A stretch of 64,000 nucleotides of DNA, from the NCBI GenBank assembly GCA_028289445.1, contig JANQPO010000017.1, forward strand, positions 186,001 to 250,000. Reading direction: 5' to 3'. The notes below the pieces were generated by a model, which worked only from the letters and a program-made list of their open reading frames with translations, searched no databases and was not told where the DNA came from. Positions 6,116 to 34,949 of the stretch are shown here, in pieces; the first letter of the stretch is position 1, and every line of letters begins with the position of its first letter. Made by a program: the position numbers and the translations under genes. This DNA comes from Tepidamorphaceae bacterium. GTDB lineage: Bacteria; Pseudomonadota; Alphaproteobacteria; Rhizobiales; JAKSCL01.

Positions 6116-6117
6116 GG

Positions 6118-7925: not shown

Positions 7926-7940
7926 CGGTCGTCACGCGTT

Positions 7941-7973: not shown

Positions 7974-7983
7974 TTGAAGCGGG

Positions 7984-11699: not shown

Positions 11700-11721
11700 G
11701 ACCGGACGTTTCGTACCGGCC

Positions 11722-12393: not shown

Positions 12394-12401
12394 GCGCCGC
12401 C

Positions 12402-13945: not shown

Positions 13946-15898
13946 TTGACCGCGTTTCCGAACCTGTTTCGACCCATTCGCCTGGGTCCGCTCGAAATCC
14001 CGAATCGGATCGTCTTGACCGGGCACGGGACCGGAATGGGCCGGGACTTCAAGCCGGACGAGCGCATGATCGGGTATTATGAGCGGCGGGCCGCCGGCGG
14101 CGTTGGGCTCATCATGCTTGGTTCGCAGCAGGTTCATCCGTCGTCTCCGGGCATCACCAACTTGTTGTGCAATTACGACAGCGGCATTGAGCCGGGGCTG
14201 GCTGCCGTCGCCGACGCCGTGCATCGCCACGGCGGGCGTGTCTTCGGGTATCTCTCGCACATGGGAGTGGCTACCACTACGGCGCCGGATGTCTCCTGGT
14301 CAGCCTCGCCGGTCCATAATCAGCGATATGGCGCAGTCGCGCATCCCATGAGCGAGGCGGAGATTGCCGAGGTCGTCGGCGCGTTCGCGGCTGCGGCGGC
14401 GCGCTGCATATCGGCTGGTCTCGACGGCATCGAGGTGCATTGCGGCCACGGGCTGCTGTTGAACCAATTTCTGTCGCCCCTAACCAATCGGCGCTCGGAC
14501 CGCTATGGCGGCTGCGTTGAAAACCGCATCCGTTTTCCAGCCGAAGTCGTGGCCGCCGTTCGCGCGGCGGTCGGTGCTGACATTCCCGTCGGCATTCGTT
14601 GCTCCGGCGACGAGCTTGTGAACGGTGGCCTCACCGTCGACGATATGGCCGAAATCGTTCCGCTTCTCGTCGCGGCCGGGCGGCTGGATTATGTCGATGT
14701 GAGCGCCGGCAATGACGGCTACGTAGTCTCCAACATGCTGCACGAGCCGCCAATGGGAGGTGGACCTGCGCCGTTCGCCGCTATCAGTCGCCGCCTGCGC
14801 GGGGCCGTCCGTGTGCCCGTTATTCATGGCACGGGCATTGCCACCGCCGAGGTCGCGGAGGCTGTCATCGCCGGAGGCGACGCGGACATGGTCGGGATGT
14901 GCCGTGCGCTGATAGCCGACCCTTTCTTGCCGCTGAAGGCACGCGAAGATCGCATAGCGGAGATCACGCCCTGTGTCGGCTGTCAGCAGGCATGTTTCGG
15001 CCGCCTGTTCAGCGGCCGGCATATTTCATGTGTGGGCAATCCGGTCACCGGCCGCGAAATCGAGCTTCCCGCTCCCGCGAAGGTGAAGCGGGCGCGCAGT
15101 GTGCTCGTAGTCGGTGGCGGGCCGGCCGGTTCGGAGGCGGCGCGCATCGCGGCACTGCAGGGCCACTCAGTTACGCTACTGGAGCGCTCCGCCGGGCTCG
15201 GCGGCCGGGTGCGGTTGGCGGCGATGCTGCCGGGCCGCCAGCGATGGCTGCGGCTGATCGACCACAAGGCGGGGGAGCTTGAACGCTTGAACGTAAAGGT
15301 CGAGCTGGGCTGCGAGGTCGGGGCGGACACCGTCGTCGAAAGGCATCCCGATGCCGTTCTCGTCGCCACTGGCGCGACACCGGTGATGCCGGAGATTGAC
15401 GGAATCGACCAGCCTCACGTTCATTGGCTCGACGCGGCGTTGCTGGCACCGGACGCGCTTGGCGAGCGGATACTCATTGTGGACTATCTGGATCGGCAGC
15501 CGGCCTTTGCGGCAGCGATGCATTTCGCCGATCAGGGCGCGTCCGTCACCATCGCCACATCGTCTTTTCAAGTCGGTCACCGCATGGTGATCCAGAACCA
15601 GACGCATTTCTATCGGGAGGCGCTGGGTCGTGGCATCGTGTTCGCGCCGTTGTCGGAAGTTGTTGAAATCACCGCGACGGACGTCATCCTTCGCGATCCA
15701 TTGGTCGGGCGACAGCGGCGGATTGGCGGGGTCGACTCCGTTGTTGTCGTCGCACCCGGCGGCCCGAGCGCGCGGCTCGCATCTGCCATCGCCGGCGCCG
15801 GCATCGCAGTGCGGGCAATCGGCGACGCCCATGCTCCACGTGACGTGGAAGCAGCTATCCTGGAGGGGCATCTGGCAGCGCGAGCTTTGTCTGCCTAG
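13946..15898 (+). CDS. Old yellow enzyme-type NADH:flavin oxidoreductase with C-terminal FAD domain
   Basis: Two-domain flavoenzyme (650 aa, TTG start) of the 2,4-dienoyl-CoA reductase/trimethylamine dehydrogenase type. Residues 1-340 are the FMN-binding TIM barrel (NRIVLTGHGTG; EVHCGHGLLLNQFLSPLTNR; SDRYGG). Four cysteines, C343, C346, C350 and C362, spaced C-x2-C-x3-C-x11-C, can bind a 4Fe-4S cluster. From 386 onward lies an FAD/NAD(P)-binding domain (VLVVGGGPAGSEAARIAALQ). Relatives reduce enoyl-CoAs or demethylate quaternary amines such as stachydrine or carnitine derivatives. Its place behind an amino acid importer fits catabolism of an amino acid betaine or unsaturated acid, but that is inference. 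Confidence 0.88.
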   Translation: MTAFPNLFRPIRLGPLEIPNRIVLTGHGTGMGRDFKPDERMIGYYERRAAGGVGLIMLGSQQVHPSSPGITNLLCNYDSGIEPGLAAVADAVHRHGGRVFGYLSHMGVATTTAPDVSWSASPVHNQRYGAVAHPMSEAEIAEVVGAFAAAAARCISAGLDGIEVHCGHGLLLNQFLSPLTNRRSDRYGGCVENRIRFPAEVVAAVRAAVGADIPVGIRCSGDELVNGGLTVDDMAEIVPLLVAAGRLDYVDVSAGNDGYVVSNMLHEPPMGGGPAPFAAISRRLRGAVRVPVIHGTGIATAEVAEAVIAGGDADMVGMCRALIADPFLPLKAREDRIAEITPCVGCQQACFGRLFSGRHISCVGNPVTGREIELPAPAKVKRARSVLVVGGGPAGSEAARIAALQGHSVTLLERSAGLGGRVRLAAMLPGRQRWLRLIDHKAGELERLNVKVELGCEVGADTVVERHPDAVLVATGATPVMPEIDGIDQPHVHWLDAALLAPDALGERILIVDYLDRQPAFAAAMHFADQGASVTIATSSFQVGHRMVIQNQTHFYREALGRGIVFAPLSEVVEITATDVILRDPLVGRQRRIGGVDSVVVVAPGGPSARLASAIAGAGIAVRAIGDAHAPRDVEAAILEGHLAARALSA

Positions 15899-15946
15899 TC
15901 TGGTGAAACCCCCAGTACTCTGGCCTTGCACGCCGAATTGGAATTT

Positions 15947-15958
15947 GTAATATATCAC
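15947..15958. promoter_or_regulatory. AT-rich palindrome GTAATATATCAC
   Basis: Twelve-base near-perfect palindrome upstream of the MmgE/PrpD gene. Its exact reverse complement (GTGATATATTAC) occurs at 27106-27117 in front of another importer operon. Probably an operator shared by both loci; a GntR-type regulator would suit the symmetry. Confidence 0.5.
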
Positions 15959-16079
15959 GAATATGGCAGATATTGCGCTGTCCGGGATTTCCGGCGTCAA
16001 GCCCGAGGGCGGCCAGGCTGCTTGATGGCTGATCCGAGGCGGTGTCTGTCAGCCGGACAATCGTGATGGGAGCTACTCA

Positions 16080-17516
16080 ATGGGCACGACAAAGACCCTG
16101 GCGGATTACCTGTCTGGGATCGAATTCGACGATTTGCCGGAGAAAGTGCGGCGGCGGGCTCTGCTTGGCGTGCTGGATATCCTGGGCGTTACGGTCGGCG
16201 GCTTGGGCATCCCAAGTTACAGCGACAAGTTCATTGCCTTGTCGAGGGCCGTCGGCGGGGGCACGCCCGAGGCCACGCTGATAGGCGGCGACAAGGTGTG
16301 CCTTTCCATGGCGGCTTTCGGCAATGCGTATCTCGCGCACGCGCTGGATTATCCGGATCACGCGACGAACAAGAGCCTGCTTGTGCATTCTCTTATGGGC
16401 GGCATCGTCGTTCCTTCGGCGCTTGCGGCAATCGAGTTTCGCGGCGGCAGTGGCAAGGACTTTCTGGCCGCGGTCGTTGCCGGCTACGAATGCGCTGGGC
16501 GGGTTTTGAGAGCCATCGACATCTCGATGGACATGGAGCCGCACATTATTGGGTTTTCGACCAGTGTCATGGGTGCGGCCGCCGCGGCCGCGCGCGGCTT
16601 GGATTTAACGAAGGACCAAACGCTGTCCACGCTCGGTATGGCCGGTCTCCAGGCACCCGTTCCAGCTGGCTACAAGTTTCTGTTCGACGTCGGTCTGACG
16701 CCGCGCAAGGATATCAAGCAGGGCTGGGGCTGGATGGCACATGCCGGGGTTTTCGCCGCGCAATCCACGTTGATGGGCCACGAGATGCTGCAGGAGAACA
16801 ACATTCTTGACGGCGACCGCAGCTTCGGCCGCATGATGGGTTACGACATCTACCATGAAGAGGCGGTGACACGAGGGCTCGGCGAGGATTTCACGCTCTT
16901 GGGCGAGGACCGCGACACATCAGGCTACCACGCGGAGCTTCAAACCAAGCGGTTTCCAGGGTGTTCCATCACCCACAGCGCCATCACCGGCGCGCGCCAG
17001 ATCATCCATGAAAACGGGCTGGGGCTGGGCGATATCGCGCGCATCGATGTGACAACCAACCGGCGCTCGGGAATTGGTGAGGATGATCAAACCCCCGAAT
17101 CCGTGCAAGATATGCAGTTCAGCATCCCCTATCAGGTCGGCGCCGGGGTGTCCGGCTATCCGCGCGGGCCGGTTTGGTACACGGATGCGCGCGAGACCGC
17201 CTTGAGCGTCGCCAAGAAAACCTTCGTCAACTTCGACGATGACTGCAACGACTATTTCCGCAAGACACGACTCCAGTTCAACAAGGTCGCGATCACCACG
17301 CAAGGGGGCGATGTGCTGCGCGCCGAGATATACGGCGAGAAGATGTTGTTCGACGAGGGCGATATCCTGGAAAAGTATCACGAGTGCACCGCACAGGTGC
17401 TCGGCGCCGACGGTGCGGCACGTTTGCATGACGCTGTGTTCGGGCTGGAGCAGGCGCGCGATACCTCGGCGCTGACCACCGCGTTGGCACCGCCAGCGCG
17501 GAAGTCGGCAGCATGA
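16080..17516 (+). CDS. MmgE/PrpD family protein
   Basis: Member (478 aa) of the MmgE/PrpD family, which includes 2-methylcitrate dehydratase and cis-aconitate decarboxylase. Family features are the helical N-terminus (LADYLSGIEFDDLPEKVRRR), GNAYLAHALDYPDHATN near residue 85, GYECAGRVLRA, and a later KRFPGCSITHSAITGA region. Such proteins usually dehydrate, decarboxylate or isomerise polycarboxylic acids. GGGAG lies eight bases before the ATG. It sits between the OYE-type reductase and a DAO oxidase, with a palindrome in its 181-bp upstream gap that may give it its own control. Confidence 0.88.
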   Translation: MGTTKTLADYLSGIEFDDLPEKVRRRALLGVLDILGVTVGGLGIPSYSDKFIALSRAVGGGTPEATLIGGDKVCLSMAAFGNAYLAHALDYPDHATNKSLLVHSLMGGIVVPSALAAIEFRGGSGKDFLAAVVAGYECAGRVLRAIDISMDMEPHIIGFSTSVMGAAAAAARGLDLTKDQTLSTLGMAGLQAPVPAGYKFLFDVGLTPRKDIKQGWGWMAHAGVFAAQSTLMGHEMLQENNILDGDRSFGRMMGYDIYHEEAVTRGLGEDFTLLGEDRDTSGYHAELQTKRFPGCSITHSAITGARQIIHENGLGLGDIARIDVTTNRRSGIGEDDQTPESVQDMQFSIPYQVGAGVSGYPRGPVWYTDARETALSVAKKTFVNFDDDCNDYFRKTRLQFNKVAITTQGGDVLRAEIYGEKMLFDEGDILEKYHECTAQVLGADGAARLHDAVFGLEQARDTSALTTALAPPARKSAA

Positions 17517-17633: not shown

Positions 17634-18911
17634 GTGGCCGCCATGCAGATGCATATCGATAGCCGTCTGGATTCCCTACCGCGATCCGTCGATGTGGTGG
17701 TCGTTGGCGCGGGCATTGTCGGTCTTGCAGCTGCATTCTTCCTCGCCAAGGAGGGGCTCGGCGTGGCGATCTTGGAAAAGCGCCGCCGCCCGGCCGATCT
17801 GACTTCGGCGCGCTCTGGTGAAGGCGTGCGTGCGCAGTGGGAAACGCCGGATGCCATTGCGCTTATGCTTCGCTCGATTGAGCTCTATCAGCGTTTCGCC
17901 GAACTAACAGGGCGCGAGGAAAACACGGCGGAGCTCAGCCGGTGCGGCTATCTCTACGCCGCGACCAGTGCGCGCGGAGCGATCGGGCTTGCCGATCGCG
18001 TGGCCCGCCAAAGGGCAAACGGCTTGTCGGACGTATCCTATCTGACTGGCGCGGAGGCCAGGCGGCGGTTCACGACATTGTCCGAAACGACGCGTGGCGT
18101 GGCCTTTCGGGCCGGCGACGGAACCGTTGTCGTCGACCGCATCGTGGCGGGTTACCTCGCGGCGACGCCCGCCCGCCTCCTGACGCAAACGCTTGCGCAT
18201 GGCGTTTGCGTGCGCGGTGGCGCCGTCGAGGGGGTGGAAACCGATCGCGGAAAAATCGCAACGCGAACCTGCGTCATTGCCGCCGGCCCCTATGCTTCCG
18301 CGCTGCTTGAGCCGTTCGATGGCGCGCCGCCGATCAGCCTGGTCAGGGGGCAGATCGCGTGTTTCGGCGCTGAGGGCGTTCCGGCGGACCATCCGGCGAC
18401 TGTCGACGTTGACAATGGCACCTTCTGGAGGCCCGACAGCACCGGTTTGCGGATCACGGCTCCCGCACGCGATGCGGAAACGGTTGCGACTCCCATTGAC
18501 GATCCGAGGCCCGACGTGGATTACCCGGCGCGGGCGCTGGCAGGTGCGCGCCGGCTGTGTCCGTTTATCGCCGGCGTCGCCAAGACCGCAGTCGCGCGCG
18601 CAGTACACTGCGGACTCTACGCCGTGACCCCGGACGGTCTACCGGCGATCGGACCGCTGCGGACAGTCGACGGCCTGTTCGTGAACGTTGGCTTCGGCGG
18701 CCTTGGAGTCATGGCCAGCATCGCGGCCGGTGAGCGTCTCGCCGCCGTCATCTCGGGCGCCGGCGCCCACGATCCCATGAGCGCCTTCGCGCCGGAGCGG
18801 TTTCACGATGGTCGACTGCTTTCGGCCGAACCCATGACCGTCAATCATCTGTCTGGGGGCAGCGCCCACGCACCGCCGCCGGCGAGCGAAATCGAGGAGC
18901 GAACAGGATGA
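17634..18911 (+). CDS. FAD-dependent oxidoreductase, DAO family
   Basis: D-amino acid oxidase/glycine-sarcosine oxidase-type flavoprotein (425 aa). The dinucleotide motif is VVVVGAGIVGLAAAFFLAKE at about residues 22-41, followed by the acidic end of strand two (ILEKR). The C-terminal FAD-closing motif is GLFVNVGFGGLGVMASIAAG. Members oxidise primary, secondary or N-methyl amines. The start is GTG; an ATG three codons later is equally possible. It overlaps the next gene by four bases. It has counterparts at 25564-27060 and 46025-47356. Confidence 0.87.
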   Translation: MAAMQMHIDSRLDSLPRSVDVVVVGAGIVGLAAAFFLAKEGLGVAILEKRRRPADLTSARSGEGVRAQWETPDAIALMLRSIELYQRFAELTGREENTAELSRCGYLYAATSARGAIGLADRVARQRANGLSDVSYLTGAEARRRFTTLSETTRGVAFRAGDGTVVVDRIVAGYLAATPARLLTQTLAHGVCVRGGAVEGVETDRGKIATRTCVIAAGPYASALLEPFDGAPPISLVRGQIACFGAEGVPADHPATVDVDNGTFWRPDSTGLRITAPARDAETVATPIDDPRPDVDYPARALAGARRLCPFIAGVAKTAVARAVHCGLYAVTPDGLPAIGPLRTVDGLFVNVGFGGLGVMASIAAGERLAAVISGAGAHDPMSAFAPERFHDGRLLSAEPMTVNHLSGGSAHAPPPASEIEERTG

Positions 18912-19690
18912 ACCAAACCCCGCGCCGCATCGGCGTGGTGACGACCGGGCACGGTCCACGCGACGAGTATGTGCGCTATCATCGGGCCGCTCTGGAGGCT
19001 CTGGGCGTCCAAGTCGAAATCGTTACCCGCCACGCTCTGGATGGCCTTACGAGCGAACAACTGGAACCGCACCGGGTTGGCGCGGATGTTCCAAATATCG
19101 GTGCCCATGTTCATGTCGCCGGAGCCAGTGGCAACCGCATGGGTCCGGGATGGGAGCACCGATTCTACGATCTGGAGTTCTGTCTCGGCCGTATACAGTC
19201 GACCGTCGATCAACTGACCGGTGCCGACGATGCCGACATCGTCATATTGGCCTGCGCCGCCGAATTGCCGGACATCACCCTTACGAGCGACCGGCTGCTC
19301 ATTCATCCGCGCGAGATTCTCTTTTCCTATGCCGAGATCCTTAGCTGGGGCATGCGTCGGCCGCTGCGCGTGGGCGTCCTGGTCGATCGCGAACATGCCG
19401 AGCAGGATCGAGCGGACTGGCAACGGCGGCCGTGGTCTTCGCGGATCAATCTCCACTTGATGCCGATGGACGGATCGGCCGAAGTGGCTGCCGCACGGCT
19501 TGCCGGGCGTGAGCCCGACCTCGCTATGATCTTTGGATACGGTGTCGGACTGGCTCCAGGCGACCGACGCGAGGAGATTGCCGATCTAGAGCGCGCGATC
19601 GGCGCACCGCTTCTTACGCCGCATCGCGCCACGAGCCTTTTTCTACGCAATCTGATTATGCCGTCGATCGACGACAGGGCCTTTGCCTGA
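18908..19690 (+). CDS. AroM family protein (paralogue 1)
   Basis: AroM-like protein (260 aa). The family is named after an E. coli gene next to aroL and its function is unknown. The N-terminus IGVVTTGHGPRDEYVRYHR matches the family signature (TIGQSPR-like). Other shared blocks with the paralogue at 22933-23718 are DADIVILACAAELP, a WGMRR/LRVGVLVDRE region, and AMIFGYGVGLAPGD near the C-terminus. The fold recalls Asp/Glu racemases with two Rossmann-like halves, but only one candidate catalytic cysteine (in ACAAE) is obvious. Coupled to the oxidase upstream (ATGA). Confidence 0.82.
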   Translation: MNQTPRRIGVVTTGHGPRDEYVRYHRAALEALGVQVEIVTRHALDGLTSEQLEPHRVGADVPNIGAHVHVAGASGNRMGPGWEHRFYDLEFCLGRIQSTVDQLTGADDADIVILACAAELPDITLTSDRLLIHPREILFSYAEILSWGMRRPLRVGVLVDREHAEQDRADWQRRPWSSRINLHLMPMDGSAEVAAARLAGREPDLAMIFGYGVGLAPGDRREEIADLERAIGAPLLTPHRATSLFLRNLIMPSIDDRAFA

Positions 19691-19691
19691 G

Positions 19692-20810
19692 ATGGCCAGC
19701 GACGTTCTGGTGATCGGCGCCGGAGCGGTCGGCGCCTATGTTGTCGAGTTTCTCGCCAGGCGCCGGGATGTGCGTGGCGTAGCCGTCGTCGACAGCCGGC
19801 CCGGCCTCGCCGAGGGCGTTGCCTGGCGGGCGCGGCTCGGAGCGCTGCAGGAAGGGATCGACGCCCATGTACAGGGGTGGGAGGCCGATGCCGCCGACGT
19901 CGATGCAATCGAAGAAACGGTTCGCGCCTGCAAGCCCCGGGTCGTGCTCCACACCGCGACGATACTGACGGTGCGTGAGCTGGCGCAGCGGTTGCGGGCC
20001 GAGACGTTTGCACGAATCCGGGCAACGGGTATGGCCGGTTTTTTGCCGGCGCAATTGTATTTGGGTCTGCGGGTGCAAAAGGCCCTTGAACGCCTATCAC
20101 CCCGGCCCTTGCTCGTTACGATGCCATTTCCCGACTTCACCAATCAGATCCTGGCAAGTTGCGGCACCGCTCCGGTCACCGGTATCGGAAATGTGGACAA
20201 CCTGGCGAGCGAATTGCAGGCCATGGCGGCCGTGTCGCTCGGCATCTCGCCCCTAAAGACGACGGCGATGGTCGTTGCCTCCCATACGACGGCGGAGTCC
20301 TTTCAGCGCGATGGTGCGGCGGGTGCCGGGCGCTGGTATGCCCGCGTCTTTGCAGCCGGCGTGGATGTAACCGACAAACTCGATATTGATGCGCTCATGA
20401 AGGAAAGTGCCAGGCGGATGCAAAGCGTCCTCATTGAGGCGCGCGTCGCGTCTTCGGCGATCAAGATTGTTCTCGGTCTGATCGTCGGCGAGGGCAAGCT
20501 CGTCCACGGCGCGGGGCCGCTGGGTCTGCCCGGCGGCTGGCCGCTGCGTCTTTCGCCCGGTGGGCCCGAGATCGTCTTGCCGCCAACTATCGACCATGCC
20601 ACCGCCTTGGCCATCAACTTGGAAGGACAGCGGCTCGGTGGACTGGCCGAGGTAACGCCCGAGGGCACGATGGTGCTGGAACCGTCCATCACGACGATGA
20701 TGCATGACGAATTCGGCCTCCGGCTCGACGCCGTTCCGATTGACGTGATCGAGGAAACGGCGCTTGCCTTGCGCGCCGCGTTGGACAGGCGTATCGCGAC
20801 GGATGGCTGA
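19692..20810 (+). CDS. Rossmann-fold NAD(P)-binding protein of unknown function
   Basis: Not recognised to a named family (372 aa). The N-terminus is a clear dinucleotide-binding fold, VLVIGAGAVGAYVVEFLARR, with an aspartate at the end of strand two (VAVVDSRP), which favours NAD. The layout recalls saccharopine dehydrogenase-like or DapB-like oxidoreductases. A second block is TTAMVVASHTTAESFQ, and the C-terminus holds LPGGWPLRLSPGGPEIVLPP. ATG at 19692 is used because it follows the AroM stop by one base. It closes the plus operon and ends eight bases from the end of the opposing operon. Confidence 0.65.
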   Translation: MASDVLVIGAGAVGAYVVEFLARRRDVRGVAVVDSRPGLAEGVAWRARLGALQEGIDAHVQGWEADAADVDAIEETVRACKPRVVLHTATILTVRELAQRLRAETFARIRATGMAGFLPAQLYLGLRVQKALERLSPRPLLVTMPFPDFTNQILASCGTAPVTGIGNVDNLASELQAMAAVSLGISPLKTTAMVVASHTTAESFQRDGAAGAGRWYARVFAAGVDVTDKLDIDALMKESARRMQSVLIEARVASSAIKIVLGLIVGEGKLVHGAGPLGLPGGWPLRLSPGGPEIVLPPTIDHATALAINLEGQRLGGLAEVTPEGTMVLEPSITTMMHDEFGLRLDAVPIDVIEETALALRAALDRRIATDG

Positions 20811-20818
20811 GCGCAAAA

Positions 20819-21466
20819 TCAACCGAAGCGGAAGCGCTGCTCCAGATAGTGTTGGAGGCTGATCAGCGCGCTGTTGATCACCAGATAGATCGCCGCGATC
20901 GTGATCAGTATTTCGAACGGCCGGTAGGTGAACGATATCAGCGCCATCGCCTCGCCGGTCAATTCGGAAACGGCGACCAGGCTGGCAAGCGCGCTGCCCT
21001 TGATGACCAGGGTCAGGTTCGACGCGAGCGGTGGCACGATGACTCGCATCGCTTGCGGAATGATGATGCGGCGCAGGGCGGTTCGATAGGGAATACCCAA
21101 GGCACGCGCGGCGTCGTATTGGGTGCGGGGCACCGCCTGAAGGCCGGCGCGGATGAACTCCATATTGTAGCCGGCCGCGGAGAGTGACAGTCCGAGAATG
21201 GCAGCTGGAACGGGGTCGAGATAGATACCGATGCCTGGCAGGCCGTAATATGCAAAGAAGAGAAGGGCAAGCGCCGGCGTCGCCCGGCTGGCCCAACTGA
21301 AGATTGCCGCCGGCCAACTCAACAAAGGTGAGCGCATGTCGCGCATGACCGCCAGCGGCAGAGCCGCGGCGACCGAAAGAACCGACGTCACGAAGGCAAT
21401 AATGAACGTCGACGTCGCGCCACGCCAAAACAGATCGAGATTGTCGAACACCACACTGAAGTTCAT
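20819..21466 (-). CDS. Polar amino acid ABC transporter permease
   Basis: HisM/HisQ-type permease (215 aa) of the second PAAT importer. The ATG at 21466 is chosen for its overlap with the previous stop and because the longer frame has no membrane character. Features are SRATPALALLFFAYYGLPGI and the EAA loop YDAARALGIPYRTALRRIII. Last gene of the minus operon, converging on the Rossmann gene. Confidence 0.9.
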   Translation of the reverse strand: MNFSVVFDNLDLFWRGATSTFIIAFVTSVLSVAAALPLAVMRDMRSPLLSWPAAIFSWASRATPALALLFFAYYGLPGIGIYLDPVPAAILGLSLSAAGYNMEFIRAGLQAVPRTQYDAARALGIPYRTALRRIIIPQAMRVIVPPLASNLTLVIKGSALASLVAVSELTGEAMALISFTYRPFEILITIAAIYLVINSALISLQHYLEQRFRFG

Positions 21467-22128
21467 GGCAATTCCGTCGAGAGACCAAAGCGCTGTTTGA
21501 ACCGCCTCGCGGCGACAATCTCCGCGACCATCAGGATGCTTGCCATCGTGGCATAAAGGGCCGACGCGAAGAGGATCAGCGTGAACGGCTGATGCGAGAC
21601 GGCGATGGCCTGCTTGGTGACCTGCATGATTTCCGTGACCGCCACGGCCGATGCAATCGAAATGCGCTTGATCGAGCCGGTTGCGTAGGTAATCCACGGC
21701 GTGGCCACGATGCGAATGACTTGCGGGAGAACGATACGGCGCAGTGCCGAAGGCAGCGGAATTCCAAGCGCGCGGGCGGCCTCGAATTGTCCTCGGTGGA
21801 CACCGGCAAGTCCGCTTTTGAATATTTCGACTTCGTAGGCGGTGCTGATCAAGGTGAAGCCGAGCACCGCCGCGCCGACCGGGCCGAGATCGAGACCCAG
21901 TTGCGGCAGGGCCAGGTAGCAGAAAAGGAGAATGACCAGTTCCGGAACGCCGCGGAAAATCCAGCCATAGATAGCGAGCGAAACCGCGAGCCAGCGCCCG
22001 GCCGCAATGGTCGCCAGCGCCGCCAGCAAGCCGATCGTCGTCGACATGAAGGATACGACCACAAAGATCGCCAGCGTCAGGAGCGTCGCGTCAAGGAACC
22101 TCGGCCAGAGAGAGACGATCATGTCCAT
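21463..22128 (-). CDS. Polar amino acid ABC transporter permease (second subunit)
   Basis: HisM/HisQ-type permease (221 aa) starting MDMIVSLWPRFLDATLLTL. It has FRGVPELVILLFCYLALPQL and the EAA loop FEAARALGIPLPSALRRIVL. It follows the ATPase gene by 13 bp and overlaps the other permease by four bases. The Shine-Dalgarno is weak, so translation probably depends on the upstream gene. Confidence 0.9.
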   Translation of the reverse strand: MDMIVSLWPRFLDATLLTLAIFVVVSFMSTTIGLLAALATIAAGRWLAVSLAIYGWIFRGVPELVILLFCYLALPQLGLDLGPVGAAVLGFTLISTAYEVEIFKSGLAGVHRGQFEAARALGIPLPSALRRIVLPQVIRIVATPWITYATGSIKRISIASAVAVTEIMQVTKQAIAVSHQPFTLILFASALYATMASILMVAEIVAARRFKQRFGLSTELP

Positions 22129-22141
22129 GGTTGAAAGGGTT

Positions 22142-22933
22142 CTAATCCATGATCCGCGCCACGAACGCCTGGAGTTCCGGCGACCGCGGCCTGTCCAAGA
22201 TGGCGTCCGGGTCGCCGTGCTCGATGATGCGTCCCGACGACATGAACAGCACCTGGGACGCCACCTGGCGCACAAAGGACATTTCGTGGCTGACCACGAT
22301 CATGGTCATGCCATCCGCGGCGAGATCGCGCATGGTCGCGAGCACCTCGCCCTTCAGCTCGGGGTCGAGCGCCGAGGTCACCTCGTCGAACAGCATCACG
22401 CGCGGATGCATGGCCAGTGCCCGGGCGATCGCCACCCGCTGCTGTTCGCCGCCGGACAATTGATGGGGATAGGCCGCGGCGCGAGGTCCGAGACGGACCT
22501 TTTCGAGAAGCACCACCGCACGTTCCGTCGCTTCGGCGCGCGGTACGCGATGAACGATCATCGGCGCCTCGATGACATTCTCAAGCGCGGTCATGTGCGG
22601 AAAGAGATTGTAGCTCTGGAAGACCATGCCGATTTCGCAGCGATAGCGCAGAAGATCGCGCTCGCGTTGTCCGATGTCGACACGCTGACCGTCCAGAAAG
22701 AGCTCACCGGCATCCGGCCGGATGAGAAGGTTGACGCAACGCAGGAACGTACTCTTTCCGGATCCCGATGCGCCGATGATGGCAGTGACCGATCCGGGAG
22801 CGGCGGAAAGGGAAACCCCGTCGAGAATGATGTTGTTTCCGAACCGCTTGACGATATTGCGGGCTTCCAGCTTCACATCGGCCGGTGACGGGTCCTGCGA
22901 TGCCGGGAGTCCTGGGTCCGAATTCGTGGACAT
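22142..22933 (-). CDS. Polar amino acid ABC transporter ATP-binding protein
   Basis: HisP/GlnQ-type ATPase (263 aa) starting MSTNSDPGLPASQDPS. It has Walker [10 protein letters not shown], the Q-loop QSYNLFPHMTA, the signature LSGGEQQR and Walker B VMLFDE. The start overlaps the AroM stop by one base (TGATG). The order binding protein-AroM-ATPase-permease-permease places an AroM gene inside the transporter operon itself. Confidence 0.93.
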   Translation of the reverse strand: MSTNSDPGLPASQDPSPADVKLEARNIVKRFGNNIILDGVSLSAAPGSVTAIIGASGSGKSTFLRCVNLLIRPDAGELFLDGQRVDIGQRERDLLRYRCEIGMVFQSYNLFPHMTALENVIEAPMIVHRVPRAEATERAVVLLEKVRLGPRAAAYPHQLSGGEQQRVAIARALAMHPRVMLFDEVTSALDPELKGEVLATMRDLAADGMTMIVVSHEMSFVRQVASQVLFMSSGRIIEHGDPDAILDRPRSPELQAFVARIMD

Positions 22934-23718
22934 CAAGGCGTCGGTTGCACGTGAATGCGTTCCGGCCAGGCGGGAGCTAGCAATAGGCGCGCGCGCTGGA
23001 CGTTCAAGATGTTGGGTGTCACGACCGGGCAGCCGAGTGTTTCGGAAATCCGGTCGAGCATATCGTCCGGATCGTTCGGCGCCAATCCATCGCCGTATCC
23101 CCAAATCAGTGCCAGATCGAAAGGACCGGACGGCACCAGGCTCTCGGCGCCCTTGCCGTTGGGAATGCCAACGCCGATCGAAACCTCGACCTGGGACATC
23201 CAGTCCTCGCGTTTCCAGGTCGCTCGGTCCTGGTCGATATGCCAGTCGGTCGGAATGAGAAGGGCAAGACGAAGACGCTCTTGCGTTCCAGCCAGGCTGC
23301 GGACCAGATCGAACATCATTTGATAGGGAAGCAGCAACGGGACGCGGGTCGAAAACGCATCGGCTGGATACCATTCGGCGCAACACATGAGAACGATGTC
23401 CGCGCCGTCTCCTTCGTGTGCCGCGATCGCCGCCCGCGCCCGTTCAATGAACCAGTCGCGCTGAACGAAGATCTCCTCCCAGCCTTGGCCCATGCGAACG
23501 TCCGCCGGCGCACCGCTGTGCACATAACAGCCGATTCCCGGTCCGTCCGCCGGATCGATCTCGAATGTGCGGATCTCCTCGCGATCAAGGCCATCCAGAC
23601 AGGCACGCTCCGTCACCTCGACGTCCAGGCCGAAGGCCCGCAAGGCGTTGCGATGAAATGCAAGATATTCAGTGCGCGGGCTCTGCCCGGTGGTCACGAT
23701 GCCGACGCGCTGCGCCAT
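22933..23718 (-). CDS. AroM family protein (paralogue 2)
   Basis: AroM-like protein (261 aa), closer to the family signature than paralogue 1: VGIVTTGQSPRTEYLAFHRN. Shared blocks are GADIVLMCCAEWYP, LRLALLIPTDWHIDQDRATW and LALIWGYGDGLAPNDPDD. Function is unknown for the whole family. It lies between the binding-protein gene and the ATPase gene of the second PAAT importer, so a role tied to the imported ligand is likely (inference). A CC pair (MCCAE) stands where paralogue 1 has a single cysteine. Confidence 0.83.
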   Translation of the reverse strand: MAQRVGIVTTGQSPRTEYLAFHRNALRAFGLDVEVTERACLDGLDREEIRTFEIDPADGPGIGCYVHSGAPADVRMGQGWEEIFVQRDWFIERARAAIAAHEGDGADIVLMCCAEWYPADAFSTRVPLLLPYQMMFDLVRSLAGTQERLRLALLIPTDWHIDQDRATWKREDWMSQVEVSIGVGIPNGKGAESLVPSGPFDLALIWGYGDGLAPNDPDDMLDRISETLGCPVVTPNILNVQRARLLLAPAWPERIHVQPTP

Positions 23719-23821: not shown

Positions 23822-24631
23822 TCAGTTCACCGGCGCCATGGACCAGTCGACAGTGGTTCCGAAGTGCGTCTCAAGCAGCGTATCGAGCGTGCCATCTTCG
23901 CGGTATTGGGTCAAAAGCGCGTCCATCGCGTCCGCCAGATTGGGCTTGCCGGCGGCAACCGCAAGGCTTTGGGAGTTCGGCCGAATAACCCCGGGTACGA
24001 CTTCGACATCCGCGTCGGCCTTGGTGAGATAGGATGGTCCGAGGAAGTCGCCGACAATGAAGTCGACGCGCTTGTTCTTGAGGTCAAGCAGCATCTCGGT
24101 CCAACCGGGATACTCCATCACGTTGGAGACACAGTCCGATCCCAGCTCCTCCAGCGCCATCTTCGGCTGGATCGCGCCACGAACGGCCCCCATCCTCATG
24201 CCGCAGACAGCGTCCCAGCCGGAGACCCTCTCGTCGCCCTTGCGGCGCACGATCGCCACGCCATTGACGGTGTAGGGCGACAAGATTCGAAAATCATCCG
24301 ATGCTAAACGCTCCGCCGTCCGGGTCACGCCGGATGCGACGACGTCGAAGCGCTTGCCGGCAAGACCGGGTAGCAGGCCGGCCCATTCCAGCTGCACAAA
24401 CTCCGGCGTCAGACCGAGTGCCTCGCTCACCTTCTTCATCACGTCGATATCGTAGCCCACCAATTCGCCCGACGTGTCGGTCATGGTGAAGGGTGGTGCC
24501 GTGCCGGTTGTGCCGATGACAATCGTGTCCGGTTTAAGGAGCTCGCCTTCGAAGTCCGCGGCATGGACGGGCGCTAGTCCCCCAAATGCCAACATCAAAG
24601 ACCAGGCGATCCCGACAACTCTTGAAAACAT
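23822..24631 (-). CDS. Polar amino acid-type ABC substrate-binding protein
   Basis: Periplasmic binding protein (269 aa) with a Sec signal (MFSRVVGIAWSLMLAFGGLA, then PVHAAD). SBP_bac_3 features are IVIGTTGTAPPFTMTDTSGE, LVGYDIDVMKKVSEALGLTP and LLPGLAGKRFDVVASGVTRT, where the arginine in TRTAER suits alpha-carboxylate binding. GGGAGG precedes the ATG by nine bases. First gene of the minus operon, with a candidate operator just upstream of the ribosome-binding site. Confidence 0.9.
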   Translation of the reverse strand: MFSRVVGIAWSLMLAFGGLAPVHAADFEGELLKPDTIVIGTTGTAPPFTMTDTSGELVGYDIDVMKKVSEALGLTPEFVQLEWAGLLPGLAGKRFDVVASGVTRTAERLASDDFRILSPYTVNGVAIVRRKGDERVSGWDAVCGMRMGAVRGAIQPKMALEELGSDCVSNVMEYPGWTEMLLDLKNKRVDFIVGDFLGPSYLTKADADVEVVPGVIRPNSQSLAVAAGKPNLADAMDALLTQYREDGTLDTLLETHFGTTVDWSMAPVN

Positions 24632-24751: not shown

Positions 24752-25567
24752 TCAGTCGCGCCCCGTAACCAAGGGGGCTGCGGCGAACCACTGGAGGAAC
24801 GCGGCCAGAGCGTCGGCCGTCACCTCCACCAGGGCGTGGCCCAACTCTGCCGTGGCGGCGGCGGGATCGCCGTAATAGCCGCAATCGCCTGAGAGGAAGA
24901 TCGGCGGCGCCACTGCACCGGCGGCGGCAAAGTTGTCCTCGGGCCCATCTGCGACATAGGGCTGGACCAGGCGCGGCGGTAGATCGCGTGCGCGCTCGGC
25001 GATCCGCGCAGCAAGTGCCTTGTCGCGTGTCGCAAGTTGAAGCGCGGTCTCGAACTCGCAGGCGTGGCCGACGGCTTTCAACCCTCCCGTCAGCAATTTT
25101 TCCCAGGCCGTGCGCGACGGGTCCCAGTAGCTCACCGTGGTGACCGGGCAACCTTCGGTGACCATCTCGCTGATGACGCTACGAAGGGGTGCCACGTTGC
25201 CGCCGTGGCTGTTGATCACCGCGACGCGGGCAAAGCCGCTGTGTAGGAGGCAGTCGACGGCGGCGCGAACCTGCATGAGGAAGATGTCGAGCGGCATGGA
25301 GATGGTGCCGGGCCGGCTTAGATGATGAGGCGAGAAGCCGTAGGCGAACGAGGGAAATACGAGGCATGGCTGATCGTGCATGCGCCGGGCCGCGGCCAGC
25401 GCCACCGCCCGTCCACATGTCATGTCCGTGTCGACCGGAAGGTGAGGACCGTGTTGCTCGATCGCCCCGACGGGCAATGCGGCCAGCGCGCCGGCGTCAC
25501 GTAGTTCAGCGATGTTGCGGTCGTTCATCGTCGCCGCGTCGACATCAAAGAGTGATTTCATGCTCAT
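24752..25567 (-). CDS. Creatininase family amidohydrolase
   Basis: Metal-dependent cyclic amide hydrolase-type protein (271 aa). The ligand pattern of creatininase is present: E and H in IEQHGPHLPVDTD with its D, H in NSHGGN and E in GHACEFETA. Known members open creatinine, cleave a formamide in riboflavin/F420 synthesis or act in mycofactocin maturation. The catabolic setting favours a small cyclic amide. Its ATG overlaps the stop of the upstream DAO oxidase by four bases, so hydrolase and oxidase likely act in one pathway. A second methionine follows two codons later. Confidence 0.87.
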   Translation of the reverse strand: MSMKSLFDVDAATMNDRNIAELRDAGALAALPVGAIEQHGPHLPVDTDMTCGRAVALAAARRMHDQPCLVFPSFAYGFSPHHLSRPGTISMPLDIFLMQVRAAVDCLLHSGFARVAVINSHGGNVAPLRSVISEMVTEGCPVTTVSYWDPSRTAWEKLLTGGLKAVGHACEFETALQLATRDKALAARIAERARDLPPRLVQPYVADGPEDNFAAAGAVAPPIFLSGDCGYYGDPAAATAELGHALVEVTADALAAFLQWFAAAPLVTGRD

Positions 25568-27060
25568 TCGTTGCGCTCATGTTTATCGTTTCGAGAAGTA
25601 GTGGCTTTGTTGCTCGGAGGTTTGGCTAATTGCCTTGTTTCATGTCGGTCGAAGATTTCCGCGAGCGCCGCGCGCCACCGGGCTCCGAAGCCGGAGACGT
25701 ATCGTAATGGCCGCGGTCGCGGCTTTGTCGCAGGCAGGGGGAGAGCACTGAAGTCCATTCGCCCGGCGCCCCGTTTCAAGCCGTCGGCGATTGCCTCGCC
25801 AAGCGCCATGCCGAGGGCCGTTCCAAGGGCGATCCCGCGCCCGTTGCAGGCGACGAGCGCGGTCACGGCGGATGATGGCGTGTAGAGCAGGGGGAGCCCG
25901 GTGCCGGTCATCGCGATCCGCCCGTGCCAGATGTGCTGAGCTTCGAGGATGTCGGACGTCAGGCCGGCGCGCTCGGCGGCCGGACCGGCGATTGCCGCCA
26001 GCCGCCGGGCATAGAACCTGGCGGCCTCCGTGCTTGCTGGTCTGAACGAGGGCAGTACCAGTCCCCCTGTCAGCAAACGACCATCGGGCGTCCAGCGCAG
26101 CGCGACGGCGTTACGGCGGGTGTCGGTGATCACATGGCCGCCGCCGAGGATTGCGGTTTGTAAAGCTTCCGGCAACGTGCCAGTGACGACCTGGTGCACC
26201 CGCACCGGCATCACCGCGACGGCAAGGCGCGGCAGAAGGCGGCTCGCGCCGTTCGTCGCGATGACCACATGGGCGGCACGGATGCGCGCTGCGCTGGATT
26301 GCAGTTCGGCGTGTCCGTCTGCACCGAAATGCAGCGCCTCCATTGGCGTGTTTTCAAAGATTTTTGCGCCTGCCTCTGCACTAGCACGAGCGATCTCGCT
26401 CACATAGGCCTTTGGATCGATTGCACCGCTGTTTGCGCGCACCACGCCGCCGTGGAGGTTCTCCAGTCCCGTGATCCCTTGCAGTTCGTCGGCGCAAAGC
26501 ACTTGATCGCCATGACCCGCACCGCGACGCAACCGGTTGAACGCGTCTGGCGTGTGGGCTGCTTCGATCCATCCGGCGCGCGCCGTCGGCACGTCGAGAT
26601 CGTGGCGGTCGATCAGATCGAAGACCATGCGTCCGGAGTCCACGGCAAAGCCGCGAAAGCGGCGCGCGCCGTCTGAACCGAGCACTGTTTCCAGCGAGAT
26701 GCCGCCGGGTAGCGGGCGAAGCGATGGTGCGACGAAGCCCGACGTTCGTCCACTGGCACCCGATGCAAGCGTCGCTTTTTCCACGACTGCGACACGCAAC
26801 CCGGCATTCGTCGCCGCCAACGCTGTGGTGAGGCCGACAAGACCGCCGCCGACGACCGCCAGGTCAACCTCGATATTCTCCGTCAGCGACCGAAAGTGCG
26901 GCCGGCCATGGTGCAAAAGGTCCCAGATCGAGGTGCCGTTCGCCGGCGGCAGTGCGAAGACGCTGACGGGCGTGTCCCGGGGTGCCTTGCGACAGGGCTT
27001 TTGAGGGCGGTTAGGGTCAGGAGTCATCCCGGATGGTGGCGCACGGCGGTTGCCTGCCAT
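25564..27060 (-). CDS. FAD-dependent oxidoreductase, DAO family
   Basis: DAO/GlpD-type flavoenzyme (498 aa from the chosen start). The FAD motif is VVGGGLVGLTTALAATNAGL, about 70 residues in, followed by GASGRTSGFVAPSL as in PuuB/OrdL-like gamma-glutamyl or amine oxidases. ATG at 27060 is used because AAAGGA lies upstream. ATGs at 27090 and 27027 are alternatives. The N-terminal residues MTPDPNRP after 27027 are encoded by a dispersed repeat, which makes the true start uncertain. Coupled to the creatininase-like gene. Confidence 0.82.
   Translation of the reverse strand: MAGNRRAPPSGMTPDPNRPQKPCRKAPRDTPVSVFALPPANGTSIWDLLHHGRPHFRSLTENIEVDLAVVGGGLVGLTTALAATNAGLRVAVVEKATLASGASGRTSGFVAPSLRPLPGGISLETVLGSDGARRFRGFAVDSGRMVFDLIDRHDLDVPTARAGWIEAAHTPDAFNRLRRGAGHGDQVLCADELQGITGLENLHGGVVRANSGAIDPKAYVSEIARASAEAGAKIFENTPMEALHFGADGHAELQSSAARIRAAHVVIATNGASRLLPRLAVAVMPVRVHQVVTGTLPEALQTAILGGGHVITDTRRNAVALRWTPDGRLLTGGLVLPSFRPASTEAARFYARRLAAIAGPAAERAGLTSDILEAQHIWHGRIAMTGTGLPLLYTPSSAVTALVACNGRGIALGTALGMALGEAIADGLKRGAGRMDFSALPLPATKPRPRPLRYVSGFGARWRAALAEIFDRHETRQLAKPPSNKATTSRNDKHERNE
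27011..27025 (-). repeat. Short dispersed repeat, copy 2, inside a coding start region
   Basis: TTAGGGTCAGGAGTC, the complement of the repeat at 4935-4950 and 31569-31587. It falls in the 5' part of the DAO oxidase frame and encodes part of MTPDPNRP. Either the repeat was translated into the protein or the real start is downstream. Confidence 0.55.
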
Positions 27061-27105
27061 GCCCGACGTTCCTTTGGGTCTAGGCACCATGGAGAGAGCG
27101 TGTTA

Positions 27106-27159: not shown

Positions 27160-28005
27160 ATGAATCGGATGATTGCGCTTATTGCAGGCATTATAACCGC
27201 CGTGTCGATCGCCGGCGGCGCCGCGGCGCAAGGCGTCATGAAAGAGGGAACCGTTAGCTTTGCCGCGGACTTCGCAGCCGCGCCAAACCAGTTCATCAAG
27301 CCCGACGGTACGAAGGACGGACTCAATGTCGACATGTGCGGTGAAGTCGCCAAGCGCATGGAACTTGAGATCGATTGGACCAATCTGGCGTTTCCGGGTC
27401 TGGTTCCTGGCCTGCAGGCGAAGCGCTACGACGGAATCTGCACGTCGATCTTCATCAATCCCGATCGGCTTCAGATCATGAACATGATCGCCTATGTGCA
27501 GTGGGGAGAAGGTCTGATGGTGCCCCAGGGCAATCCCGCCGGAGTGACCTGCGATAGCGAGATCGGCGAAGACGCGTCCTATGAAGCGTGTTTCGATAGT
27601 CTGGCCGGCCGCACGGTTTCCGTCGCCGCCGGCGGTACGACCAATCGGCATCTGCAGGAAAACAGCGATCGGATGACGGCGGCAGGGCTCCAGGCAATCA
27701 ATATCTTGGCCTTCGATTCCAACGCAGAGGCCATCCAGGCTGTTGCGGCGGGACAGGCAGAGGCGGCCTATCTCAACGATCCTCAGGCGGCCTTCTACAT
27801 CAAAACAAGCGGGGGGCCGTTTGAAATGGCGTTCACGGGCAACAAGGCGAATCGCCTGGCGATCGCCACGTTGAAGGAAAACACCGAGTTGGCGGACGCT
27901 ATTCACATGGCTTTGAAAGAGATGCGCGCCGATGGTGTTTATGAGAAGATCGTTGAGAAGTGGGGCGTCGCCGGAGTGCCGGATTTCGTTCTCAACCCCA
28001 AATAG
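27160..28005 (+). CDS. Polar amino acid-type ABC substrate-binding protein
   Basis: Periplasmic binding protein (281 aa). The ATG at 27160 is chosen for its Sec signal (MNRMIALIAGIITAVSIAGG, then AAAQ) and for AAGAGGGG upstream. The body fits SBP_bac_3: TKDGLNVDMCGEVAKRMELE, FPGLVPGLQAKRYDGICTSI and AIQAVAAGQAEAAYLNDPQA. There are several cysteines (DMCGE, GICTS, VTCDS, EACFD), of which two could form a disulfide. Starts the third PAAT operon. Confidence 0.9.
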   Translation: MNRMIALIAGIITAVSIAGGAAAQGVMKEGTVSFAADFAAAPNQFIKPDGTKDGLNVDMCGEVAKRMELEIDWTNLAFPGLVPGLQAKRYDGICTSIFINPDRLQIMNMIAYVQWGEGLMVPQGNPAGVTCDSEIGEDASYEACFDSLAGRTVSVAAGGTTNRHLQENSDRMTAAGLQAINILAFDSNAEAIQAVAAGQAEAAYLNDPQAAFYIKTSGGPFEMAFTGNKANRLAIATLKENTELADAIHMALKEMRADGVYEKIVEKWGVAGVPDFVLNPK

Positions 28006-28221
28006 GCAGGCTTAAGACTCAGGCCGTATCGCATTATTCGGACTTGGAACGTTGCAGGCGTCGCGTTTGCGCGGCATCGGATATGAAATCGTCGACGCCG
28101 CCGATCCCTTTCAACGTGCCGCGTTCCAGGCCCGAACCCTTGCGCTCGATGCCGCCTGATGCACGAATTCCAGCCGCGCCGACAGTGGGTGCGATAGTGT
28201 GTCGTGCTTCGGTTGAGGCCG

Positions 28222-28938: not shown

Positions 28939-28962
28939 CATAGCTAGGAGAATCGAAAGCTG

Positions 28963-31571: not shown

Positions 31572-31587
31572 GGGTCCTGACCCTAAA
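31569..31587. terminator. Palindromic repeat copy 3 between convergent genes
   Basis: AGGGTC-CT-GACCCT is a perfect 6-bp inverted repeat with a two-base centre. It overlaps the end of the fusion gene and the stop of the convergent cupin gene. Same dispersed repeat as at 4935-4950 and 27011-27025. It is probably too short for an efficient terminator alone. Confidence 0.5.
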
Positions 31588-31948: not shown

Positions 31949-31996
31949 ACCTCGTCTCCGTTTTTTCGCTGTGGTCCGCTGACCGAGGCCCCGTCA

Positions 31997-32752: not shown

Positions 32753-32876
32753 CGAGAGATACGTCCCGCTTGAATGTTTTCCAACTCGAACGCCGTCGGA
32801 TTTGACGGTTTCTCGTAATTGGAATACTACCTAATATAGCAAACGGCCGGCTGCGCAAATCATGGAGATACCCACA

Positions 32877-34903: not shown

Positions 34904-34949
34904 GTGAACCAAATGGCGCCCGAGTCGAGAAGATATTTCAGCTTTTTCC

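What the first reader, a model, noticed from the sequence alone, without database searches (positions are those of the whole stretch)
18908..23718. Two AroM-family paralogues, each tied to a polar amino acid ABC importer
AroM function is unknown. Here one copy sits in the enzyme tail of importer operon 1 and one inside importer operon 2 (binding protein-AroM-ATPase-permeases). Linkage to transporters, twice, suggests AroM acts on an imported amino acid-like ligand, maybe as a racemase-like enzyme given the Rossmann-like halves and Cys region.
Basis: partly seen in the sequence, partly recalled or inferred. Interest (0 to 1): 0.52.

Follow-up and report, generated by a model that had tools for sequence, protein, structure and literature searches.

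The report
Paired AroM enzymes in hydantoinase-importer cluster
A bacterium carries two sister copies of AroM, a protein of unknown function, inside a cluster of import and hydantoin-type ring-opening genes, and both copies have kept only one of the two catalytic cysteines of the racemases they resemble.

Summary
Confirmed: two AroM-family (PF07302) paralogues, AroM1 18908-19690(+) and AroM2 22933-23718(-), 34% identical, the only ones found in the genome. They are an old pair: nine loci hold both, each forming its own clade. AroM2 lies inside importer operon 2 in 9 of 9. Importer 1 is conserved 8-10 kb from AroM1 in 6 of 6 relatives where a longer stretch was fetched. Family-wide, 40 of 48 AroM loci have a transporter gene within 5 kb, against 13 of 40 control places; seven loci with the E. 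coli-type cysteine pattern have none. AlphaFold models give both AroMs the Asp/Glu-racemase fold (best Z 15.8 and 16.0, hydantoin racemase), but the second-half cysteine is replaced by a GYG/AYG loop, so classical two-cysteine racemisation is unlikely. Best reading: single-cysteine, cofactor-free proton-transfer enzymes (isomerase, tautomerase or decarboxylase) acting on an imported hydantoin-like amino-acid derivative. Substrate and reaction are inferred, not shown.

The parts
18908..19690 (+). AroM1: PF07302 family, one conserved cysteine (C116), half-II motif FGYGVGLAP
22933..23718 (-). AroM2: PF07302 family, conserved cysteine C113, half-II motif WGYGDGLAP
17634..18911 (+). DAO1: FAD-dependent amine/D-amino-acid oxidase family, overlaps AroM1 by ATGA
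19683..20810 (+). SDH-like NAD(P)-binding protein (saccharopine-dehydrogenase-like N-terminus, just below the Pfam cut-off); start uncertain
   Evidence: conserved in the cluster
20819..21544 (-). PermB2, permease of importer 2 (start uncertain)
21463..22130 (-). PermA2, permease of importer 2 (start uncertain)
22142..22933 (-). ATP2, ATPase of importer 2; start overlaps the AroM2 stop (TGATG)
23822..24631 (-). SBP2, SBP_bac_3 binding protein of importer 2; keeps the Arg and Asp of the amino-acid site
24752..25567 (-). Creatininase-family amidohydrolase
25564..27090 (-). DAO2, FAD-dependent oxidoreductase (L-pipecolate-oxidase-like, below cut-off)
32862..33539 (+). HydRac: Asp/Glu/hydantoin racemase (PF01177), both cysteines (C80, C183)
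33527..34903 (+). AmdHyd: hydantoinase/allantoinase-type amidohydrolase, best NCBIfam match ErtD hydantoin-5-propionate amidohydrolase (495 bits, cut-off 600)
35143..36069 (+). DHDPS-family lyase/aldolase
36069..36845 (+). SDR-family oxidoreductase
27172..31571 (+). Importer 3: SBP3, Perm3A, DapB-like (2,4-diaminopentanoate-dehydrogenase-like), permease-ATPase fusion
31583..32752 (-). Small cupin (weakly ectoine-synthase-like, below cut-off) and GntR/FCD regulator
10809..13915 (+). Importer 1 (SBP1, PermA1, PermB1, ATP1); conserved 8-10 kb from AroM1 in 6 of 6 longer stretches of relatives
13946..17516 (+). OYE/FadH-type flavoenzyme (13946-15898; in 6 of 6 longer stretches) and MmgE/PrpD-family protein (16080-17516; seen in L003/L171 only)
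9446..10426 (-). Ornithine-cyclodeaminase/mu-crystallin family protein

Best explanation
AroM1 and AroM2 are a co-inherited pair of divergent AroM-family enzymes with the Asp/Glu-racemase fold and a single conserved active-site cysteine (half I), in an uptake-and-degradation cluster for a hydantoin-like or other cyclic-amide derivative of an amino acid. Importers 1 and 2 bring ligands in. One or both AroMs then carry out a cofactor-free, cysteine-dependent one-sided proton transfer (isomerisation, tautomerisation or decarboxylation) that feeds the ring-opening and oxidising enzymes (AmdHyd hydantoinase, creatininase, DAO1, SDH-like, DHDPS-like lyase, SDR). Ordinary racemisation of hydantoins is left to the separate two-cysteine HydRac. 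Shown by computation: family, predicted fold, cysteine pattern, pair conservation, cluster content, purifying selection. Inferred: substrate class, reaction and order of steps.
For: Both over the PF07302 cut-off. Models at mean pLDDT 89.1 and 89.2; best matches hydantoin racemase 2eq5 (Z 15.8, rmsd 3.0, 192 aligned; Z 16.0, rmsd 3.0, 194 aligned), with maleate isomerases, arylmalonate decarboxylase and other members of that superfamily at Z 14-15. The half-I Cys is present in 21 of 21 complete window- and Rhizobium-type members and the half-II Cys is absent in 22 of 22; profile alignments place AroM2 C113 on canonical AroM C103 and both canonical cysteines on HydRac C80/C183. AroM1 and AroM2 form clades (99*, 99*), joined at 98*; their distances correlate at r = 0.94 over 28 locus pairs, and third codon positions take most of the changes in the four pairs counted for each. 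SBP2-AroM2-ATP2-PermA2-PermB2 plus SDH-like, creatininase and AroM1 in 9 of 9 pair loci; DAO1 in 8 of 9, its place in L006 lying beyond the contig end. Importer 1 and OYE in 6 of 6 longer stretches. HydRac and AmdHyd on the AroM contig in 8 of 8 pair genomes searched and in the Martelella plasmid. In L006, L007, L008 and L064 the order HydRac-AmdHyd-DHDPS-SDR-SBP2-AroM2-ATP2-PermA2-PermB2 lies on one strand without a large gap. Other AroM loci also have hydantoinase-type genes (HyuA or S-Me-THD/DUF917 within 5 kb in 24 of 28) and transporters (27 of 28). In arylmalonate decarboxylase the single cysteine is the only proton donor, a second one making racemases (PMC4996985, passages).
Against: AroM proteins are said to be experimentally uncharacterised (PMC11055893, passages), so no activity supports this. 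AmdHyd is below the ErtD cut-off, so 'hydantoin' is a class guess. A relative of the hydantoinase cluster exists without AroM (G182, L168), so the ring-opening pathway does not need it. The direct profile comparison of AroM1/2 with HydRac gave only a weak local match, across halves. Another residue could stand in for the missing cysteine. The cluster's DAO, OYE, PrpD and cyclodeaminase genes, and the extra GMC oxidoreductase and third DAO in five relatives, would also suit betaine, N-methyl or opine substrates.
Confidence: 0.5

Rival explanations
1. AroM1/2 are racemases or epimerases after all: C113/C116 is one base and a non-cysteine residue (for example Tyr of the GYG loop, or the invariant H160/D164 of AroM2) is the other.
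For: Best structural match is a hydantoin racemase. H67, H160, D164, Y208 and D216 are invariant in 13 of 13 aligned AroM1/2. In 3 of 4 Rhizobium-type clusters (L065-L067) no HydRac was found in the fetched stretch, leaving AroM as the only racemase-fold protein seen beside the hydantoinase.
Against: A separate two-cysteine HydRac lies in 9 of 9 pair clusters and, in Microvirga, also about 10 kb from the single-type AroM (L170).
Confidence: 0.25
2. The cluster's substrate is not a hydantoin but an N-methylated, betaine-like or opine-like amino acid; the AroMs isomerise an enamine/imine made by the DAO oxidases.
For: Two DAO-family oxidases, an OYE-type flavoenzyme, OCD and a DapB-like (2,4-diaminopentanoate-dehydrogenase-like) protein; five relatives add a GMC oxidoreductase and a third DAO. 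DAO1 and SDH-like were found in all pair loci that cover their place, and in neither of the two AroM-free hydantoinase stretches looked at.
Against: HydRac-AmdHyd-DHDPS-SDR form one same-strand run with importer 2 and AroM2 in four relatives.
Confidence: 0.2
3. The AroMs are non-catalytic partners of the importers (ligand sensor or chaperone of uptake).
For: AroM is encoded inside the importer operon in two different gene orders; the wider family includes a zero-cysteine AroM group.
Against: An invariant cysteine and a dense set of invariant polar residues; AroM1 lies among enzyme genes, not inside an importer operon's core.
Confidence: 0.1
4. Classical two-cysteine amino-acid racemase.
For: Fold only.
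Against: Second cysteine absent in 22 of 22 members.
Confidence: 0.05

Closest known systems
AroM family (PF07302), E. coli type and two-cysteine type
   Same: Over the Pfam cut-off; N-terminal T[IT]G[QH]xPR motif; profile match probability 99.4%.
   Different: About 35-40 residues longer, half-I Cys only; the two-cysteine type has LCTG and DCxG, the E. coli type keeps only the half-II Cys. Far below the cut-off of the NCBIfam model NF007788 (31.7 and 40.2 against 198 bits); that this model stands for E. coli AroM is recalled.
Hydantoin/allantoin racemases (PF01177; 2eq5, 3qvj)
   Same: Predicted fold, half-I cysteine position; the window's own HydRac is of this kind.
   Different: No half-II cysteine; below the PF01177 cut-off (16 against 31 bits).
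Arylmalonate decarboxylase (AMDase)
   Same: Fold (3dtv, Z 14.6 and 14.5) and a single catalytic-position cysteine; genes often beside transporters (PMC4996985, passages).
   Different: AMDase has Gly in half I and Cys in half II; here it is the reverse, as in the engineered G74C/C188S enzyme 3ixl (Z 14.4 and 14.2).
EutA in ehuABCD-eutABCDE ectoine clusters
   Same: A proposed racemase encoded with an ABC importer and ring-processing enzymes beside a GntR-superfamily regulator (PMC5924519, passages). The window's OCD protein matches the EutC model weakly (104.6 bits, cut-off 471.65).
   Different: No EutB, EutD or EutE counterpart was recognised among the window proteins scanned; sequence relation of AroM to EutA was not tested.
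AroM genes in non-CDPS cyclodipeptide-oxidase clusters
   Same: AroM, hydantoin racemase, DUF917 and transporter genes already reported as enriched there, with a racemase-like predicted structure for AroM (PMC11055893, passages).
   Different: The passages read concern other clusters and do not describe the paired, single-cysteine subfamily or its SBP_bac_3 importers.

Membership tests
AroM (PF07302) | Score over Pfam's curated cut-off | tested here: met
   41.0 and 56.7 bits against 23.8
AroM (PF07302) | N-terminal T-I/T-G-Q/H-x-P-R motif | tested here: met
   TTGHGPR and TTGQSPR against TIGQxPR or TVGQxPR in canonical AroM
E. coli-type AroM (NCBIfam NF007788; identity of the model recalled) | Equivalog cut-off 198 bits and half-II DCLG[FY]H-type motif | tested here: not met
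   31.7 and 40.2 bits; GYG in place of the Cys motif
Asp/Glu racemase superfamily | Two-domain pseudo-symmetric fold | tested here: met
   Predicted models only; Z 15.8 and 16.0 to 2eq5, 192 and 194 residues, rmsd 3.0
Two-base Asp/Glu/hydantoin racemases | A cysteine in each half | tested here: not met
   Half-II Cys absent in 22 of 22; both present in HydRac, 12 of 12
Arylmalonate decarboxylase | Gly74 in half I and Cys188 in half II, motifs LMGTSLSF and ILLSCGGL | tested here: not met
   Window: DIVILACAAE / DIVLMCCAEW and FGYG / WGYG; motifs from PMC4996985 (passages)
Any of these | Measured activity and substrate | not testable with these tools
EutA | Sequence kinship to EutA | not tested
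   No EutA sequence was compared

The most novel reading that the evidence does not exclude
AroM1 and AroM2 form an obligate pair (a heteromer, or two steps in a row) that makes a new catalytic branch of the Asp/Glu-racemase fold: a natural mirror image of arylmalonate decarboxylase, with the cysteine in half I only, acting on a newly imported cyclic amino-acid derivative. Unlike AroM pairs elsewhere (a two-cysteine AroM next to or within 2.5 kb of a zero-cysteine one in L076, L088, L089, L092, L094) would make working in pairs a general habit of AroM.
Probability: 0.18. Interest if true: 0.72.

Novelty: new variant of a known kind. Interest (0 to 1): 0.5.

Why it matters
The aroM gene of E. 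coli was sequenced in 1986 (title in the reference list of PMC11055893) and the same paper of 2024 still calls the family uncharacterised. Loci with the E. coli-type cysteine pattern give no clue (transporter within 5 kb in 0 of 7), but the other AroM loci nearly always have a transporter and often hydantoinase-type genes. The window's cluster narrows the choice of ligand, supplies three binding proteins whose ligands can be screened, and gives a sharp prediction (one cysteine, one-sided proton transfer) that separates these AroMs from racemases.

Tried and rejected
Longer stretches show it in 6 of 6, so that conclusion is withdrawn; the Martelella stretch still lacks it. Rejected: literal two-cysteine racemase. 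Rejected as AroM: five weak PF07302 hits (L020-L023, L050), which are HydRac relatives at 41-48% identity; two of them (G225, G099) pass the AroM cut-off, so its tally of 14 of 297 over the cut-off overstates AroM by two.

Led nowhere: sequence-only PDB searches with AroM1, AroM2 and their profile; viral-contig scan (11 pattern matches, none a relative); sample of the Alloyangia family (1 of 198 genomes, its own, with at most 13 first-look candidates scored in each); paper searches on AroM alone, with TyrR, hydantoinase or ABC transporter, and on creatininase clusters and ergothioneine. A complex prediction of AroM1 with AroM2 and distances in the models could not be had here.

Caveats on the transporter count: the seeds for SBP_bac_5, SBP_bac_8, Opp/Pot permeases, OPT and TctC came from AroM neighbourhoods and those for PAAT proteins mostly from the window, which favours the cases; with ABC ATPases alone it is 33 of 48 against 13 of 40 (p = 0.0012). 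Loci share ancestry (L073 and L155 are near-duplicates, both counted), so p-values are optimistic. The 48 leave out the window and two near-duplicate plasmid records (H2, H4). The groups were drawn by hand: eight loci of unnamed family f242 (1 of 8 at 5 kb; the one, L152, has two cysteines), while a ninth f242 locus, L100, stands among the others. One control (L134, a positive) lies near an AroM locus of the same contig; L147 was fetched as a control but not used.
Full report
What is there. Both proteins named in the finding exist at the stated places and are over the Pfam AroM cut-off. They share 34% identity and are the only PF07302 matches found in the genome. AroM1 overlaps DAO1 by ATGA, and AroM2 overlaps the ATPase of importer 2 as TGATG.

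An old, co-inherited pair. All of these carry AroM1 as well (in Salipiger AroM1 is cut by the contig end). In the 64-row tree AroM1 and AroM2 are each one clade (SH-aLRT 99*, 99*), joined at 98*, and grouped at 86 with the single AroM of Rhizobium, Sinorhizobium, Agrobacterium and a second Microvirga locus. This is a quick tree, in which the tool warns that long branches meet. Distances of the two proteins rise together over 28 locus pairs (r = 0.94), and most nucleotide changes are at third codon positions. The pair is rare: in the order sample only G000, G230, G249 and G050 hold it (16 of 297 genomes had any PF07302 match), and in a sample of 198 genomes of the Alloyangia family only its own.

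Which neighbours are conserved. In all nine loci AroM2 is between SBP2 and ATP2, and SDH-like, creatininase and AroM1 are in the cluster. DAO1 is found in 8 of 9; in Salipiger its place is beyond the contig end. Importer 1 lies 8-10 kb from AroM1, with OYE nearby, in 6 of 6 longer stretches (L171-L176). In the Afifellaceae MAG (L171) the strand is the same but 4.3 kb with unassigned reading frames intervene; in Faunimonas, G050 and Microvirga order or strand differ. The Martelella stretch lacks importer 1. Five of the six longer stretches add a GMC oxidoreductase and a third DAO beside importer 1; these are absent from the window and L171. The importers near AroM are not an accident of an importer-rich genome: it has only 7 SBP_bac_3 matches, 3 of them here.

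At 32862-36845 the window holds HydRac (PF01177), AmdHyd, a DHDPS-family protein and an SDR. HydRac has both cysteines, C80 and C183, as do 12 of 12 aligned sequences including itself, and its nearest solved relatives are called hydantoin or allantoin racemases. AmdHyd's best NCBIfam match is hydantoin-5-propionate amidohydrolase ErtD, 495 bits, below the cut-off of 600; its best PDB match is an L-hydantoinase, 1gkr. In L006, L007, L008 and L064 the order is HydRac-AmdHyd-DHDPS-SDR-SBP2-AroM2-ATP2-PermA2-PermB2 on one strand; SDH-like, creatininase and AroM1 follow directly, on the other strand, in the first three, and after GntR, DAO2, cupin and DAO1 in L064. HydRac and AmdHyd are on the AroM contig in 8 of 8 pair genomes searched. 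Rhizobium-type loci L065-L067 carry AroM between two permeases of a similar importer, with AmdHyd, DHDPS and SDR but no HydRac in the stretch fetched; the second Microvirga locus has AroM, two AmdHyd, and HydRac about 10 kb away (L170). Against a strict dependence: G182 has HydRac-AmdHyd-DHDPS-SDR with an importer-3 operon, creatininase, DAO2 and cupin but no AroM, DAO1 or SDH-like in the stretch (L168), and its only PF07302 hit is a HydRac relative. G092, without a PF07302 match, is similar with fewer genes (L167). So AroM, importer 2, DAO1 and SDH-like look like a module added to a hydantoinase pathway, though two AroM-free examples are few and only one stretch of each was read.

Transporter linkage of AroM in general. 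I took 48 AroM loci (the PF07302 matches that proved to be AroM, the named and plasmid loci, and the second Microvirga locus) and 40 control stretches from 20 of the same genomes at one third and two thirds of a contig. A transporter gene lies within 5 kb in 40 of 48 against 13 of 40, and within 2 kb in 35 of 48 against 8 of 40. PAAT-type binding proteins or permeases lie within 5 kb in 14 of 48 against 0 of 40. By group at 5 kb: pair loci other than the window 8 of 8, Rhizobium type 4 of 4, other canonical and zero-cysteine AroM 27 of 28, and a hand-drawn group of eight loci of unnamed family f242 1 of 8 (0 of 7 for those with the E. coli-type cysteine pattern). The eighth locus without a transporter is L081, an odd 654-aa frame. 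HyuA or S-Me-THD (DUF917) genes lie within 5 kb in 24 of the 28 other loci and in none of the pair or Rhizobium-type loci. Pfam confirmed representatives: Dpp-type importer, SBP_bac_8 importer, OPT, DUF1177, TctC. The seeds favour the cases; ABC ATPases alone give 33 of 48 against 13 of 40.

Active site. AlphaFold2 models of AroM2 and AroM1 (13-row alignments, mean pLDDT 89.1 and 89.2) match the Asp/Glu-racemase fold: hydantoin racemase 2eq5 is first in both lists, and maleate isomerases, arylmalonate decarboxylase, allantoin, glutamate and aspartate racemases fill the rest at Z about 11-15. Foldseek's own best hit for AroM2 is also 2eq5, TM-score 0.52 by the query. Canonical AroM has a cysteine in each half (LCTG, DCxG), and these align with HydRac's two cysteines. 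AroM1/2 align with canonical AroM at 99.4% probability, C113 on C103, while the half-II loop reads GYG with no cysteine. The half-I cysteine is present in 21 of 21 complete members of the window-type and Rhizobium-type groups, and the half-II cysteine is absent in 22 of 22. The direct comparison with HydRac matched half I of AroM to half II of HydRac over 48 columns, weakly, as can happen with pseudo-symmetric halves. E. coli-type AroM shows the opposite loss, and a further clade of 11 rows lacks both cysteines.

Mechanism. In arylmalonate decarboxylase one cysteine is the only proton donor and a Gly stands in for the other; racemases of the superfamily have both (PMC4996985, passages). By analogy a half-I-only enzyme should handle protons on one face: decarboxylation, tautomerisation or isomerisation rather than racemisation. 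That is inference. The engineered G74C/C188S decarboxylase has the same single-cysteine layout (3ixl among the fold matches); its inverted stereochemistry is given by a title in the reference list of PMC4996985. SBP2 keeps the Arg and Asp aligned with an amino-acid binding protein, whose roles I recall rather than tested; SBP1 has Asn in place of the Asp. The creatininase keeps the E-x-H...D and HGGN-type stretches of its solved relatives (alignment); that these bind metal is recalled.

Known before. PMC11055893 (passages only) states that AroM proteins are uncharacterised, resemble hydantoin and Glu/Asp racemases in predicted structure, and are enriched, as transport genes are, in some cyclodipeptide-oxidase clusters. 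So the general idea of AroM as a racemase-like enzyme near transporters is in print. In the listings I saw nothing on the paired single-cysteine subfamily; the library lacks most subscription papers.

Verdict. The most useful corrections are that these AroMs are unlikely to be ordinary racemases and that they belong to a cluster holding hydantoinase-type chemistry.

Noticed in passing
L076, L088, L089, L092, L094 (and about 8 kb apart in L091, L093): Other AroMs also come in unlike pairs: a two-cysteine AroM beside a zero-cysteine (Ser/Thr/Ala) AroM; the 11 zero-cysteine rows form one clade.
   Followed up: partly
L020-L023, L050 (G225, G099, G182, G036, G481): The PF07302 model picks up HydRac-type racemases weakly, twice above its own cut-off.
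   Followed up: yes
L172-L176: Five relatives have a GMC oxidoreductase (fused to a gluconate-2-dehydrogenase-subunit-3 domain) and a third DAO between importer 1 and OYE; the window lacks both.
   Followed up: partly
window 33527-34903: AmdHyd reads DGQTH where 1gkr has DEHVH (alignment): the first His, which I recall as a metal ligand, is Gln.
   Followed up: no
window 27172-31571: Importer 3 carries a 2,4-diaminopentanoate-dehydrogenase-like enzyme between its permeases and a fused permease-ATPase; also in L003, Microvirga, Martelella and G182.
   Followed up: partly
window 31583-31948: Small cupin with a sub-threshold match to ectoine synthase (25.5 bits, cut-off 27), 61-98% identical in several relatives.
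   Followed up: no
L168 (G182:C111:62500-82000): Hydantoinase cluster with importer 3, creatininase, DAO2 and cupin but no AroM, DAO1 or SDH-like in the stretch.
   Followed up: partly
G1003:C5:165361-165783 (Salipiger mangrovisoli genome): A second AroM-like fragment with an internal TAG on another contig.
   Followed up: no
G1002:C198 (L148, L170): Microvirga has a second, single-AroM cluster of Rhizobium type with two AmdHyd genes and HydRac nearby.
   Followed up: partly
window 2707-9240: Upstream sugar-type ABC importer (SBP_bac_1, MalK-like ATPase), MR/MLE enolase-superfamily enzyme and LysR regulator.
   Followed up: no
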